NCBI GenBank assembly: GCA_023259055.1 | Contig: JAHFQZ010000003.1 | Coordinates: 124,001-188,000 of the forward strand | Length of the DNA stretch: 64,000 bases | Origin: Nitrosomonadales bacterium | GTDB taxonomy: Bacteria > Pseudomonadota > Gammaproteobacteria > Burkholderiales > Gallionellaceae | Reading direction: 5' to 3' | Part shown: in pieces, positions 10,271-53,061 of the stretch | Layout of the letters: every line of letters begins with the position of its first letter | How positions within the stretch are numbered: the stretch's first letter is position 1 | Notes under the pieces: model-generated | Seen by the model: the letters and a program-made list of their open reading frames with translations, nothing else | Told to the model about the DNA's origin: nothing | Databases searched by the model: none | Position numbers and translations under genes: made by a program

Positions 10271-10336
10271 CGAATATTCAGGGGGGAGCATCCACTCCGA
10301 TGGAATTAATCTTTTAGAAGCAGTTTGGCGGTCGTA

Positions 10337-10382
10337 AACCAATGGCTAATCCAGCGTTTATTGCTGGTTTAGTCAGATGGTT
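10337..10382 (-). repeat. Three-tier hairpin repeat, copy G (minus orientation)
   Basis: Read on the minus strand: outer stem AACCA/TGGTT, asymmetric spacers TCT and AT, middle stem GACTAA/TTAGCC (one G-T pair), inner stem CCAGC/GCTGG and loop AATAAAC. The spacers and layout match the copies at 52310 and 52391 although the stem sequences differ. It lies between the convergent trpB2-like and YkgJ-like genes. Confidence 0.75.
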
Positions 10383-10446
10383 GGTGGTTATATCAGCAGT
10401 TACATCAGGCTCGGGATTGCCTTCACCATAGCCATGTGCTTTCGCC

Positions 10447-32449: not shown

Positions 32450-32510
32450 TTCCATCTCTATTTCATCGGTGAAACTGTGTTGGCTTCCTCGCTCACTCCT
32501 GATGAAACAA

Positions 32511-32560
32511 CTAGCCATTCGACTAGGCTATCAAAATACGATAGCCAAGTCGCTGGTTAT
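32511..32560 (+). repeat. Three-tier hairpin repeat, copy A
   Basis: Outer stem TAGCCA/TGGTTA, spacers TTC and GC, middle stem GACT/AGTC, inner stem GGCTATC/GATAGCC, loop AAAATAC. It lies between the UbiA gene and the YbhN-like gene. Compared with copy B only the third inner pair from the loop changes (A-T versus G-C), keeping pairing. Confidence 0.85.
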
Positions 32561-32637
32561 AGCCGTGCTACATGTACTGTCAGCGTCGCTCGCTTGTCGC
32601 CGCCTTGTTTGACCTTCGAAATAAAAATGGAATAAAC

Positions 32638-33612
32638 ATGGCTGAATCCCGTTCGCGTCCCACCCTGAGCGGTTGGCGTTTCCGTGCGCTGTTGCTGATC
32701 GTGCTGCTGAGCGCGGCCGGCTATCTGGTGTTTTCGATATGGGGTGGCTGGCAGGAAGTGGTGGCCGCGATTGCCCGCGTCGGTATTATCGGCATTGCCA
32801 TTGCGCTTTCGCTCTCGCTGGTAAATTACGGCGTTCGTTTTGTGCGCTGGCAGAAATTCCTTGCACTGCTCGGCCATCGGGTGCATGCCCCGGAAAGCCT
32901 GCGCATCTACATTGCGGGATTCGGCCTGACGATCCTTCCCGGTAAGGCAGGCGAGACGATACGCAGCGTATTTCTCAAACATCATGGCGTTCCCTATCCG
33001 CAAAGCCTGGCAGCCTTTTTCTCGGAACAGTTATCCAACCTGATCAGCATGCTGCTGCTGACCAGCATCGGCCTGTGGGTCTATCCTCCGGCCAAACCGC
33101 TGGCGCTGATTCTTGCCGTATTGATCCTGGCCGGACTGGTGATCCTGCAACAAACCAGATGGCTGCAAAGGCTCAAGACCATCGCGCATGACAAGCTGCC
33201 TGCGCGTCCGACACATTTCGTCACCTCTGCCGTTGAAATCGTGCTGCACTCGGGACGCTGTTTCAGCCTGCCGATGCTGCTGTATGGCATCGCACTCGGA
33301 TTGATCGCCTGGGGCGCGGAGGGAATGGCTTTCTACTACATCATGCATGTCCTCGGCAGCAATATTTCGCTGCAAACCGCGCTGTTCATTTACTCTTTCT
33401 CGATGCTGGTCGGCGCGCTCAGCTTCCTGCCCGGCGGTCTGGGTGGAACAGAAGCCACGATGGTGGCGCTGTTGATGCTCAACAGCATCGGTCAGCCCGA
33501 GGCTGTAGCTGCGACCGTGCTGATTCGGCTGGCCACATTATGGTTTGCCGTCGGGTTGGGAATCATTGCGCTTACGCTGCCAGAGCGGATAAAACAAGCC
33601 GACTATTCGTAG
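32638..33612 (+). CDS. YbhN/AglD-type membrane protein (LPG synthase transmembrane-domain family)
   Basis: About 324 residues with around eight membrane helices. It has GLTILPGKAGETIRSVFLKHHGVPYPQSLAAFFSEQL and SFLPGGLGGTEATMVALLML, both signatures of the lysylphosphatidylglycerol-synthase TM family, without the catalytic domain. Members are linked to lipid or polyprenyl-sugar flipping. Following the arabinose operon on the same strand, it may flip the lipid-linked sugar to the periplasm; this is inference. The ATG at 32638 gives MAESRSRP. Confidence 0.82.
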   Translation: MAESRSRPTLSGWRFRALLLIVLLSAAGYLVFSIWGGWQEVVAAIARVGIIGIAIALSLSLVNYGVRFVRWQKFLALLGHRVHAPESLRIYIAGFGLTILPGKAGETIRSVFLKHHGVPYPQSLAAFFSEQLSNLISMLLLTSIGLWVYPPAKPLALILAVLILAGLVILQQTRWLQRLKTIAHDKLPARPTHFVTSAVEIVLHSGRCFSLPMLLYGIALGLIAWGAEGMAFYYIMHVLGSNISLQTALFIYSFSMLVGALSFLPGGLGGTEATMVALLMLNSIGQPEAVAATVLIRLATLWFAVGLGIIALTLPERIKQADYS

Positions 33613-33743
33613 GGTGGGCAGACAGGGTTCTCGTCTGATGTAGCCACTAGCCATTCGACTAGGCTGTCAAAAGACGACAGCCAAGTCGCTGGTTATGCCC
33701 ACGCGGTTTGGTATCCGCGTGGGCACAAAATCGTGCCCACCCT
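33611..33743. repeat. Inverted repeat (AGGGTGGGCA ... TGCCCACCCT) containing a nested hairpin repeat
   Basis: 10-bp perfect outer arms at 33611-33620 and 33734-33743. Inside the right part is a second perfect hairpin, GCCCACGCGG/CCGCGTGGGC (33697-33724). Between the arms lies copy B of the three-tier repeat. The region separates the convergent YbhN-like and tesA genes. Confidence 0.8.
33647..33696 (+). repeat. Three-tier hairpin repeat, copy B
   Basis: Outer stem TAGCCA/TGGTTA, spacers TTC and GC, middle GACT/AGTC, inner GGCTGTC/GACAGCC, loop AAAAGAC. It sits inside the inverted repeat 33611-33743. Confidence 0.85.
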
Positions 33744-49954: not shown

Positions 49955-52231
49955 ATGAAATTAAAAAAACTGGCGGGGTTGATTCTCCTGCTTTGCACCT
50001 CTCATGCCCGGGCAATAGTGCCTTTTGTCGTCAAAGATATTCGCGTTGAGGGTATTCAACGCACTGAAGCCGGCACGGTGTTCAGTTATTTGCCTGTCAA
50101 GGTTGGCGATACCATGGACGATCAACAGGCATCGCTGGCGATTCACGCCTTGTACGCCACCGGGTTCTTTAAGGATGTTAGTGTTAAAGTCGAACGCGGC
50201 GTGCTGATCGTGCAAGTGCACGAGCGGCCTTCGATTGCGAGTATTGTGATCAATGGGGTTAAGGATTTTCCAAAAGATCAGCTTAAGGAAAATATGAAAT
50301 TTGCCGGGCTGGCCGAAGCGCGTATTTTCGATAAAGGTGCGCTTGATAAAGCTACCCAGGAGTTGAAACGCCAATATGTTGCTCGAGGCAAATATGGTGT
50401 TAATGTTACGACTACCGTCACTGAGCTGGAACGCAATCGCGTCAGCATCGTGTTTGAGGTTGTGGAAGGCAAAGCTTCCAAAATCAAGCAAATCAACCTG
50501 GTTGGCAATCATGCATACAAAGAAGAAGAGTTGCTGGATTTGATGAAGCTCAGCACGCCCGGTTGGTTTAGCTGGTTCAGTAGTAGCGACCAGTATTCCA
50601 AGCAAAAACTGTCGGCCGATATAGAAATGCTGCGATCATTTTATATGGATAACGGTTACATGGAATTCAATATTGATTCCACCCAGGTTTCGATCACTCC
50701 GAACAAGAAGGATGTTTACATAACCATCAACTTCAGCGAGGGTGCAAAATATACTATCGCCAAGGTGGGCGTGTCCAGCGATACACGCATACCGAAAGAC
50801 GAAATCGAAAAGCTCGTGAAGCTGAAAGCGCGGGATACTTTTTCTCGTAAAGATCTGATTGAAACCAACAAGCTGATTGGCGAACGTTTGGGGCGTGAAG
50901 GCTATGCTTTTTCCAACGTAAATGCGATTCCGGAAATTGACAAGGAAAAACACGAGGTTTCTTTTAATATCATGGTGGATCCCGGTCAGCGCGTATATAT
51001 TCGCCGTATCAATATTGCAGGCAACGACAAGACACGCGATGAAGTCATACGCCGCGAATTTCGCCAAGTCGAGGGAGAATGGTTTGATGTGGATAAGATC
51101 AAAAAATCCAAACAGCGTGTGGATAAACTGGATTTTTTTGGCGAAGTGAATATTGAAACGCCATCTGTGCAGGGTGCGGCTGACCAAATGGATGTGAACT
51201 TGTCGGTAAAGGAGAAATCGACCGGAAATATTTCGATAGGTGCGGGTTATTCAAGTGGTGAAGGTCTTGTGTTAAGCGGCGCTGTTACTCAGGCCAATTT
51301 GTTCGGCACCGGAAATCATATTTCCACACAAATCAATACCGGCAAAATCAATCAGGTATATTCGCTTTCGTACACAAACCCCTATTTCACCGATGAGGGG
51401 GTGAGTCGCGGGTTCGATGTTTATAAGCGCAATACCGATACTATAAGCACTGCATTGAGCCAATACTCTTCCCATACTTTAGGTGGTGGTGTTCGTTTTG
51501 GCGTGCCGATAGCTGATGATGAGTCGGTTAGCTATGGTTTGGCGGTTGAAAGAACAGAACTGGGTTTGACGGCATCAAGTCCTTTGCGATTAACGAAATA
51601 CGTCAAAGATTTTGGTGCAATTAACCGCAGTTTGCCAGGAACAATTGGTTGGGGTAAGGATAGCCGTGACAGCGCAATTTATACTACAGAAGGGACTGTA
51701 CAGCGTGCCTTTGCAGAAATAGCCCTGCCAGTGTGGGATATGCGATATTGGAAGCTTAATTACCAGTATCAGTTGTATTATCCGGCGAACAGAAATATGA
51801 CCTTGTTGCTGAATGGCGAAGCAGGTGTTGCTGACGGTTATAAAGGCAAACAATTGCCGTTCTTCAAGAATTTTTACGCCGGTGGCCCCGGTTCGGTACG
51901 CGGTTATGACCCCAATTCGCTTGGTCCGCGAGATACGTCGAATGCGGTATTGGGCGGCAAGCGTCGTATAGTTGGCGGAGCAGAGCTAATGATGCCATTT
52001 CCGGGGATGGAGAAGGAAAAATCGGTTCGTTTGAGCGGATTTTTTGATGCGGGTGCGGTATACGGGTCGGGTGATTTGCCGGGTAGCGCCGGATTGCGCT
52101 ATTCTGCCGGAGCAGCCTTTACATGGTTGTCTCCTGTGGGCCCGCTTAAATTCAGTTATGCTTTGCCAATCAAGAGGAAACCGGTCGATATGATACAGAA
52201 ATTCCAGTTTACTTTGGGTTCGATGTTCTGA
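49955..52231 (+). CDS. bamA: Outer-membrane protein assembly factor BamA
   Basis: 758 residues. Signal peptide 1-20 (ending SHARA), five POTRA domains (about 22-420) and a 16-strand barrel. Conserved lid motif VRGYDPNSLGPRD and C-terminal Phe (KFQFTLGSMF). Central insertase for outer-membrane proteins. Starts 4 nt after rseP; four hairpin repeats follow before skp. Confidence 0.97.
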   Translation: MKLKKLAGLILLLCTSHARAIVPFVVKDIRVEGIQRTEAGTVFSYLPVKVGDTMDDQQASLAIHALYATGFFKDVSVKVERGVLIVQVHERPSIASIVINGVKDFPKDQLKENMKFAGLAEARIFDKGALDKATQELKRQYVARGKYGVNVTTTVTELERNRVSIVFEVVEGKASKIKQINLVGNHAYKEEELLDLMKLSTPGWFSWFSSSDQYSKQKLSADIEMLRSFYMDNGYMEFNIDSTQVSITPNKKDVYITINFSEGAKYTIAKVGVSSDTRIPKDEIEKLVKLKARDTFSRKDLIETNKLIGERLGREGYAFSNVNAIPEIDKEKHEVSFNIMVDPGQRVYIRRINIAGNDKTRDEVIRREFRQVEGEWFDVDKIKKSKQRVDKLDFFGEVNIETPSVQGAADQMDVNLSVKEKSTGNISIGAGYSSGEGLVLSGAVTQANLFGTGNHISTQINTGKINQVYSLSYTNPYFTDEGVSRGFDVYKRNTDTISTALSQYSSHTLGGGVRFGVPIADDESVSYGLAVERTELGLTASSPLRLTKYVKDFGAINRSLPGTIGWGKDSRDSAIYTTEGTVQRAFAEIALPVWDMRYWKLNYQYQLYYPANRNMTLLLNGEAGVADGYKGKQLPFFKNFYAGGPGSVRGYDPNSLGPRDTSNAVLGGKRRIVGGAELMMPFPGMEKEKSVRLSGFFDAGAVYGSGDLPGSAGLRYSAGAAFTWLSPVGPLKFSYALPIKRKPVDMIQKFQFTLGSMF

Positions 52232-52239
52232 TAAAACTA

Positions 52240-52287
52240 CTAAGTATTGGCTAAGCCAGCAAAGAACGCTGGCAAGCCACTACTTAT
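52240..52287 (+). repeat. Three-tier hairpin repeat, copy C
   Basis: Outer TAAGTA/TACTTA, middle GGCT/AGCC, inner GCCAGC/GCTGGC, loop AAAGAAC. All three stems differ from copies A and B yet are perfectly paired. Confidence 0.85.
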
Positions 52288-52309
52288 GATGAAACTACTG
52301 GTGAAACAA

Positions 52310-52359
52310 CTAGCCATCTGACTAGGCTGTCCAAAAACGACAGCAAAGTCATTGGTTAT
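52310..52359 (+). repeat. Three-tier hairpin repeat, copy D
   Basis: Outer TAGCCA/TGGTTA, spacers TCT and AT, middle GACT/AGTC, inner GCTGTC/GACAGC, loop CAAAAAC. Confidence 0.85.
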
Positions 52360-52390
52360 AGCCATTTCATTAGGACGCCAAAAGGCTTTG

Positions 52391-52438
52391 CATAGCCATC
52401 TGACTAAGTTGGTAAACTACACCCCAAGTCATTGGTTA
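52391..52438 (+). repeat. Three-tier hairpin repeat, copy E (degenerate inner stem)
   Basis: Outer TAGCCA/TGGTTA, spacers TCT and AT, middle GACT/AGTC; the inner stem is weak (GTTGGT against ACCCC). A further partial right half (AGTGGCTGGTTAT) lies at 52448-52460. Confidence 0.7.
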
Positions 52439-52470
52439 ACGGCGACCAGTGGCTGGTTATGATAAAACTA

Positions 52471-52520
52471 CGAGCCATTCGGCTAGGAGGATAAAAAACA
52501 TCATCCAAGTCGCTGGTTAT
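52471..52520 (+). repeat. Three-tier hairpin repeat, copy F
   Basis: Outer AGCCA/TGGTT, spacers TTC and GC, middle GGCT/AGTC (one G-T pair), inner GGAGGAT/ATCATCC with one mismatch, loop AAAAAAC. It ends 19 nt before the skp start codon. Confidence 0.8.
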
Positions 52521-52539
52521 GAAATGCAAGGAGTAAGTC

Positions 52540-53061
52540 ATGAAGTTGATAATCAAAGCAGGGATGTTTGCCGTTTTGCTTGGTGCGGGATTGGTTTGTG
52601 CTGAAGATTTCAAAGTTGGTGTAGTTGATACCGAGCGGATCTTGCGTGAGTCTGTTCCCGCAAAGAAAGCTGAAAGAAAAATCGAAAAGGAATTTTCCGG
52701 ACGCGATCAGGAAATCAAGAAGCTGATGAAGCAGACCAAAGAATTGCAGACCTTGCTGGAAAAAGATGACGGAAAACTTTCGGATGCTGATCGTCGCAAC
52801 AAGGAGCGTGAGTTGACCTCCATGAACGTGAACTTGCAACGAATGCAACGCGAGTTTCGCGAAGATTTGAATTTGCGCAAGAACGAAGAGTTGGCCATCG
52901 TGTTGGAGATGGCTAACAAGGCAATCCAGGCGATTGCCGAAGCGGAAAAATACGATCTTATTTTGCAGGAGGCGGTGTATCGCAATCCAAAAATTGACAT
53001 CACAGACAGTGTGATCAAGCATTTTGCCAATGACAAGTCCGACAGCAAGGACAGCAAGTAA
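52540..53061 (+). CDS. skp: Periplasmic chaperone Skp/OmpH
   Basis: 173 residues. Signal peptide 1-21, then [28 protein letters not shown] and long amphipathic helices (about 45-140) forming the tentacles of the trimer. Holds unfolded outer-membrane proteins for BamA. AAGGAG at 52528-52533 is the ribosome binding site. Confidence 0.93.

What the first reader, a model, noticed from the sequence alone, without database searches (positions are those of the whole stretch)
52232..52539. Four tandem covarying hairpins between bamA and skp
The 308-bp gap is almost filled by copies C, D, E and F of a roughly 50-nt element: outer 5-6 bp stem, asymmetric bulge (3 nt against 2 nt), 4-bp middle stem, A/A mismatch, 6-7 bp inner stem and a 7-nt A-rich loop ending in C. 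Copy C shares almost no stem bases with D, yet every stem is paired. Such compensatory change is strong evidence for selection on structure, either as RNA (mRNA processing, decay or translation control between bamA and skp) or as folded single-stranded DNA recognised by an enzyme.
Basis: seen in the sequence. Interest (0 to 1): 0.75.

Follow-up and report, generated by a model that had tools for sequence, protein, structure and literature searches.

The report
Self-nesting mobile DNA hairpins in Gallionella
The hairpins between bamA and skp are copies of a 56-60-letter mobile DNA element that has spread through Gallionella-type iron bacteria by inserting at exact spots, including into its own copies, and the short tag in front of each hairpin goes with the kind of spot it lands in.

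Summary
The bamA-skp gap contains five elements, not four.

The structure is real and covaries, but it is not a local bamA-skp device. It is a genus-wide mobile family: 71 covariance-model hits in this 2.6-Mb genome, present in 72 of 76 genomes of the genus, absent from 24 other families of the order.

Each unit is a short leader plus a 46-48-nt hairpin. It inserts precisely, with no target duplication, as matching empty sites show (68 type-1, 60 type-2 candidates). Leader TGATGRAACWAC goes with insertion between C and T. Leader GCTTTGCA goes with insertion at R|ACG, often inside hairpin loops, including the element's own. The bamA-skp gap varies from 15 to 313 nt among relatives and often has no element.

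Best explanation: a REP-like, non-autonomous single-strand transposon whose leader sets the target, as guide sequences do in IS200/IS605. The enzyme was not found. A Y1/HUH transposase of the RAYT type is likeliest, but the element lacks the GT[AG]G foot of REPs and no Y1 gene carries flanking copies. No prior description was found in the searched library.

The parts
52229..52240 (+). leader of copy C (TGATAAAACTAC); its first three bases are the bamA stop codon
   Evidence: sequence; model R1 hit 52229-52287; every orthologous gap with a recognisable type-1 element has a TGA stop, element-free ones TAA, TAG or TGA
52241..52286 (+). hairpin of copy C (divergent stem AAGTA/TACTT)
   Evidence: z -5.9; only seen at this site in three genomes
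52287..52298 (+). type-1 leader TGATGAAACTAC belonging to the outer E hairpin (separated from it by insertion of D)
   Evidence: nesting pattern: two leaders followed by two hairpins
52299..52310 (+). type-1 leader TGGTGAAACAAC of copy D
52311..52358 (+). hairpin of copy D
   Evidence: z -4.5
52359..52384 (+). 5' half of the outer E hairpin, up to the loop
   Evidence: joined with 52439-52459 it matches an uninterrupted copy (88%, locus L133)
52385..52392 (+). type-2 leader GCTTTGCA of the nested element
   Evidence: empty-site comparison CAAAAG|ACG
   Evidence: model R1 hit; weak fold
52439..52459 (+). 3' half of the outer E hairpin
52460..52471 (+). type-1 leader of copy F
52472..52519 (+). 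hairpin of copy F
   Evidence: z -2.4
32500..32559 (+). solitary type-1 copy (leader + hairpin)
33636..33695 (+). solitary type-1 copy (leader + hairpin)
10335..10395 (-). type-1 copy with two leaders, divergent
   Evidence: 60.6 bits

Best explanation
It is a short non-autonomous mobile DNA element that works like a REP or an IS200/IS605 end. One unit is a 5' leader plus a 46-48-nt hairpin ending in TGGTTA. Shown by sequence: precise insertion without target duplication; the right end always after GGTTA; type-1 leader TGATGRAACWAC (12 nt, sometimes 13) with C|T targets; type-2 leader GCTTTGCA (8 nt) with R|ACG targets, often in hairpin loops; insertion into its own copies, at the leader-hairpin junction (AC|TA) or in the loop. 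Inferred: a Y1/HUH-type transposase binds the folded single strand, cuts before the leader and after GGTTA, and rejoins the piece at a target picked by the leader, which acts like the guide tetranucleotide 5' of the hairpin foot in IS200/IS605. Between bamA and skp, an insertion at TTC|TGA rebuilt the stop codon because the element itself begins with TGA, so BamA stayed intact and the gap became a landing pad for four more elements.
For: Dispersal: 71 hits in the own genome; 72 of 76 genomes of the genus, 0 of 24 other families of the order. Junctions: 119 of 138 insertions have C at -1; without imposing T, +1 is T in 191 of 204. Empty sites: 68 type-1 insertions with candidates, e.g. GAGGAC|TGTC, CCTCC|TCGCAATGACG, GTTAC|TGGC; 60 of 77 type-2, with A or G at -1 in 96% and ACG following (79/88/78%), e.g. 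CAAAAG|ACG, GCACGGA|ACGCAG. Type-2 junctions lie in a predicted hairpin loop in 52% against 25% for shuffled flanks; type 1 does not (25% against 31%). Nesting: clean two-leader/two-hairpin and three/three arrays. Covariation. Literature: TnpAREP binds single-stranded hairpins and cuts at CT (PMC8266576); in IS200/IS605 a guide 5' of the hairpin foot sets the cleavage site (PMC6006769). Copy number correlates with group-2-like RAYT genes (rho 0.68, n=47).
Against: No Y1 gene with flanking type-1 copies was found. G078 and G087 have about 70 and 49 copies without a full-length group-2-like RAYT, though each has another Y1 gene; G021 and G079 (83% complete) have at least 71 copies and no PF01797 match. 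RAYTs here sit beside their own GTAG-type REPs. The element has no GT[AG]G at the 5' foot. The RAYT correlation is not corrected for phylogeny, and integron integrase also correlates (rho 0.57). Position-by-position pairing between leader and target was not demonstrated. The strand bias expected of lagging-strand targeting is strong in one genome (17:4) but not in two others (29:22). As DNA the strand opposite to the leader-first one folds better in 159 of 170 copies, so which strand is processed is open.
Confidence: 0.6

Rival explanations
1. A cis-acting RNA array that controls processing, decay or translation of the bamA-skp mRNA, kept by selection at this locus.
For: The array lies between co-directional genes and folds stably. 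Type-1 copies between two same-direction genes more often point with the genes (45 against 23).
Against: The gap has no such element in many relatives (15-60 nt) and 1-5 elements in others. Most copies lie at unrelated sites. Departures from pairing are more often A/C than G/T on the gene-sense strand (119 against 38, conserved column 15/58 left out), the reverse of what selection on sense RNA predicts. Hairpins E and F of the window array are decaying.
Confidence: 0.06
2. Integron-type recombination: the hairpins are attC-like sites moved by an integron integrase.
For: A full integron integrase is present in 38 of 76 genomes, including this one, and correlates with copy number. attC sites are folded single-stranded hairpins (own knowledge).
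Against: Insertion is at C|T or R|ACG, not at the G|TT core of attC. G010 has about 63 copies with no full-length integrase. The repeat found beside the own genome's integrase is different (ends GTTAGGG). Elements are not concentrated near integrases (7 hits at E<0.001 in 140 kb). No cassette genes lie between copies.
Confidence: 0.06
3. Another recombinase, not a Y1 transposase (an IS110-type enzyme with bridge RNA, or an undescribed one), moves the element.
For: No single Y1 subfamily is present in all high-copy genomes. IS110-family IS621 also uses a CT core (PMC11208160 appeared; details from own knowledge).
Against: An IS110-type exchange leaves the same dinucleotide core on both sides (own knowledge); here the left junction is C|T but the right is A|T, and type 2 has R|G and A|A. 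The unit is far smaller than an element carrying a bridge RNA. Not tested further.
Confidence: 0.2
4. Replication slippage or simple duplication of palindromes, with no dedicated enzyme.
For: Palindromes are prone to rearrangement (own knowledge); locus L276 carries a tandem duplication of one REP-plus-element block.
Against: Constant ends, a fixed junction at more than 200 sites and clean empty sites need sequence-specific cutting.
Confidence: 0.02

Closest known systems
REP elements and their RAYT (TnpAREP) transposases, group 2 / subclass 2.2
   Same: Short intergenic imperfect hairpin with conserved stem irregularities, tens of copies per genome, species-group specific; insertion at CT matches the published CT cleavage of TnpAREP (PMC8266576). 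Group-2-like RAYT genes occur in most high-copy genomes.
   Different: No GT[AG]G at the 5' foot (CWAC or TGCA instead), no RAYT flanked by copies, a leader of 8 or 12 nt, exact 56-60-nt insertions with empty sites, and two leader classes with two targets.
IS200/IS605 insertion sequences (IS608, ISDra2) and miniature derivatives
   Same: Insertion without target duplication, different sequences cut at left and right, subterminal hairpin, target apparently linked to a short sequence 5' of the hairpin.
   Different: No gene, only one hairpin instead of two, hairpin ends flush at the right cut, target only 2-4 nt, type 2 enriched in hairpin loops.
Integron attC sites
   Same: Folded hairpin with bulges, one unit per insertion.
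   Different: No GTTRRRY/RYYYAAC boxes with a G|TT cut, no cassettes; the genus has separate integrons.
Rickettsia palindromic elements and other intragenic palindromes
   Same: Mobile palindrome that can stay open in frame; one copy is read through in gatB.
   Different: Unrelated sequence (own knowledge, not compared here); mostly intergenic here.

Membership tests
REP / REPtron | GT[AG]G tetranucleotide at the 5' foot of the hairpin | tested here: not met
   5' foot is C(T/A/C)AC (type 1) or TGCA (type 2) on the leader-first strand; on the other strand GTAG-like bases lie 3' of the hairpin
REP / REPtron | a tnpAREP gene flanked by copies of the element | tested here: not met
   no Y1 gene examined has flanking type-1 copies; nearby Y1 genes have their own GTAG-type REPs
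REP / REPtron | single-strand cleavage at CT by TnpAREP | not testable with these tools
   insertion at C|T fits, but activity needs biochemistry
REP / REPtron | high-copy, dispersed, intergenic, imperfect hairpin | tested here: met
IS200/IS605 | insertion with no target-site duplication | tested here: met
   empty sites
IS200/IS605 | target determined by a guide 5' of the hairpin foot | tested here: inconclusive
   two leader classes go with two target classes; base-pairing within type 1 not demonstrated
IS200/IS605 | own tnpA gene between two hairpins | tested here: not met
   units are 56-60 nt with no gene
IS200/IS605 | insertion into the lagging-strand template | tested here: inconclusive
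   17:4 in the single-contig genome G063, 29:22 in G000 plus G026
integron attC | GTTRRRY / RYYYAAC boxes and G|TT recombination point | tested here: not met
   junctions are C|T or R|A
classical MITE | terminal inverted repeats with target-site duplication | tested here: not met
   leader is not repeated at the right end and no duplication is seen
Rfam RNA families | match above a gathering score | tested here: not met
   only two tRNAs in the window

The most novel reading that the evidence does not exclude
A single-strand hairpin transposon with an exchangeable targeting tag: the same hairpin carries one of two unrelated 5' leaders, and the leader alone decides whether it enters C|T sites or R|ACG sites in hairpin loops, including its own. 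The enzyme would be a Y1 relative with a non-GTAG guide code, or a recombinase not yet described.
Probability: 0.35. Interest if true: 0.78.

Novelty: new variant of a known kind. Interest (0 to 1): 0.6.

Why it matters
How REP-like hairpins spread has long been unclear, because insertions with clear ends and empty sites are rarely seen. Here more than 100 insertions have candidate empty sites, exact ends are visible, and nature offers two leader classes with two targets. That makes the guide idea for REP-like elements directly testable in a simple cleavage assay. It also shows that strong stem covariation in an intergenic array can come from a mobile DNA family rather than from a local regulatory RNA.

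Tried and rejected
Local RNA regulator: rejected as the main cause because the gap is variable or without elements in relatives. Integron attC: rejected on junction, distribution and the different repeat at the integron. A DUF559 gene linked to some copies proved to be flanked by another repeat family in which the element merely sits. The Y1 gene about 80 bp from one copy (C4:150 kb) appears to belong with a GTAGGGGCGATT-type repeat, into which that copy inserted. Leader-to-target base covariation within type 1 gave nothing clear: part of the apparent T at -1 comes from 13-nt leaders. Plasmid and phage collections gave no match. Two literature searches that included Gallionella found no description of this repeat.

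Full report
What is in the gap. bamA (Omp85/POTRA) ends with TGA at 52229-52231 and skp (OmpH) starts at 52540. Reading the 308 nt between them with copies from elsewhere gives five units, not four: leader C + hairpin C; leader + leader + hairpin D + hairpin E-outer; a second element (leader GCTTTGCA + hairpin E-inner) inside the E-outer loop; leader F + hairpin F. The region folds with z -5.9. As single-stranded DNA, C and D fold well, F moderately and E-inner poorly, so at least one copy is decaying.

It is a dispersed family. A BLAST search of the own genome found 44 matches on both strands. A covariance model from 36 copies (61 positions, 18 pairs) found 71. The covariation is real: 91% of cells paired, 13 of 18 pairs with double changes, score 0.273 against 0.114 +/- 0.009 for shuffles and at most 0.085 for slid structures. 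Related copies are not independent, so this counts pair types rather than separate events. A pattern scan of 84,980 species genomes returned at least 118 stretches, those listed mostly titled Gallionella, Gallionellaceae, Gallionellales or Nitrosomonadales.

It is mobile, and its ends are exact. In 138 distinct insertions the base before the leader is C in 119. In a looser set of 204, where T was not imposed, the base after the hairpin is T in 191. Nearly half of the exceptions at -1 are a 13-nt leader (TGGGTGAAACAAC and similar), which restores C|T; most of the rest have T at -1. Joining the two flanks gives a sequence found uninterrupted elsewhere for 68 insertions, for example GAGGAC|TGTCTGAG, CCTCC|TCGCAATGACG, GTTAC|TGGCGAAGCC and CCCTC|TCCCGCAAGCGGG. 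A few of these matches are short (20-25 nt), but many run over 40-60 nt at above 90% identity. Nothing is duplicated or lost.

Two leaders, two targets. A second class has leader GCTTTGCA and the same hairpin. It was found in 38 of 76 genomes with no match for the reversed control pattern. Of 77 flanks, -1 is A (64%) or G (32%) and the right flank reads ACG (79/88/78%); 60 have candidate empty sites, such as CAAAAG|ACG (the loop of the element itself), GCACGGA|ACGCAG and GGGCGGGTTTG|AAACCCGCC. In 52% the junction lies in a predicted hairpin loop, against 25% for shuffled flanks; type 1 shows no such enrichment (25% against 31%). The right end after GGTTA is the same in both classes. The leader is thus what differs along with the target. 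In IS200/IS605 the cleavage site is set by base interactions between a guide tetranucleotide 5' of the hairpin foot and the target (PMC6006769), and REPs are thought to use GTAG similarly (PMC8266576). I infer a guide role for the leader; pairing was not shown.

Self-nesting. Arrays with two leaders then two hairpins, or three then three, occur cleanly six times, as expected if a unit inserts at the AC|TA junction between another unit's leader and hairpin. The bamA-skp array follows this: D was inserted into the E-outer unit, and a type-2 element into the E-outer loop; the order of these two events is not known.

Why bamA-skp. All orthologous gaps with recognisable type-1 elements have bamA ending in TGA, whereas element-free gaps have TAA, TAG or TGA. 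Insertion at TTC|TGA recreates TGA, because the element begins TGATG or TGATA, so BamA keeps its C-terminal Phe. Orthologous gaps measure 15 to 313 nt: 15, 17 or 18 nt without elements, 90 with one, 229 with three hairpins, 239 with four. Copy C was seen in three genomes, at this site only. This is the history of a landing site, not a conserved regulator.

Which strand and which enzyme. Departures from pairing are more often A/C than G/T on the leader-first strand (119 against 38, with the nearly invariant G-T of columns 15/58 left out), and the opposite strand folds better as DNA in 159 of 170 copies. This speaks against selection on a sense RNA but may partly reflect composition. Orientation follows the leading-strand direction 17:4 in the single-contig genome G063 (positions, GC skew) but 29:22 in two others, so strand preference in insertion is open. 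Copy number correlates with group-2-like RAYT genes (rho 0.68) and with integron integrase (rho 0.57) in 47 genomes at least 90% complete; shared ancestry was not removed. Exceptions exist both ways: G078 and G087 have many copies and no full-length group-2-like RAYT, and G001 and G022 have RAYTs and few or no copies. No Y1 gene with flanking type-1 copies was found, and the RAYTs looked at have their own GTAG-type repeats. The Y1 identity is therefore an inference from mechanism: hairpin, no duplication, different left and right cuts, CT preference.

Integron alternative. Half of the genus, including this genome, carries a full integron integrase. The element lacks the G|TT recombination point, the repeat beside the own integrase is different, and elements are not concentrated there.

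Placement. It works like a REP or IS200/IS605 end but fails defining features of each (GT[AG]G foot, flanked tnpA gene, own transposase), so I do not file it as a member. I call it a new variant of the single-strand hairpin transposon kind. Two literature searches including Gallionella found no description; subscription journals are mostly not covered.

Noticed in passing
L174 5258-5692, L210 145-513, L238 1467-1778, L086 1071-1934: DUF559 (PF04480) endonuclease-like genes are flanked by CCCTCTCCC(C)GCAAGCGGGAGAGGG-type intergenic repeats; these repeats may have their own mobilising system.
   Followed up: partly
L279 3145-3204: A type-1 element is inserted in frame inside gatB, adding about 20 residues without a stop.
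   Followed up: partly
own genome G000:C5:12475-13416; 38 of 76 genomes of the genus: Full-length integron integrases are common in this genus.
   Followed up: partly
L276 1323-2003, L279 1471-2016: Group-2-like RAYT genes sit beside their own GTAG-type REPs (GTAGGGCGGGT..., GTAGGGTGGATA...); in L279 the RAYT lies just upstream of gatB.
   Followed up: partly
window 32500-33695: Two solitary copies in the same orientation flank a 346-aa ORF (32572-33612).
   Followed up: no
L305, L338, L326, L402 and others: Type-2 elements often sit at the tip of GTAG-type REP hairpins, so one repeat family interrupts another.
   Followed up: partly
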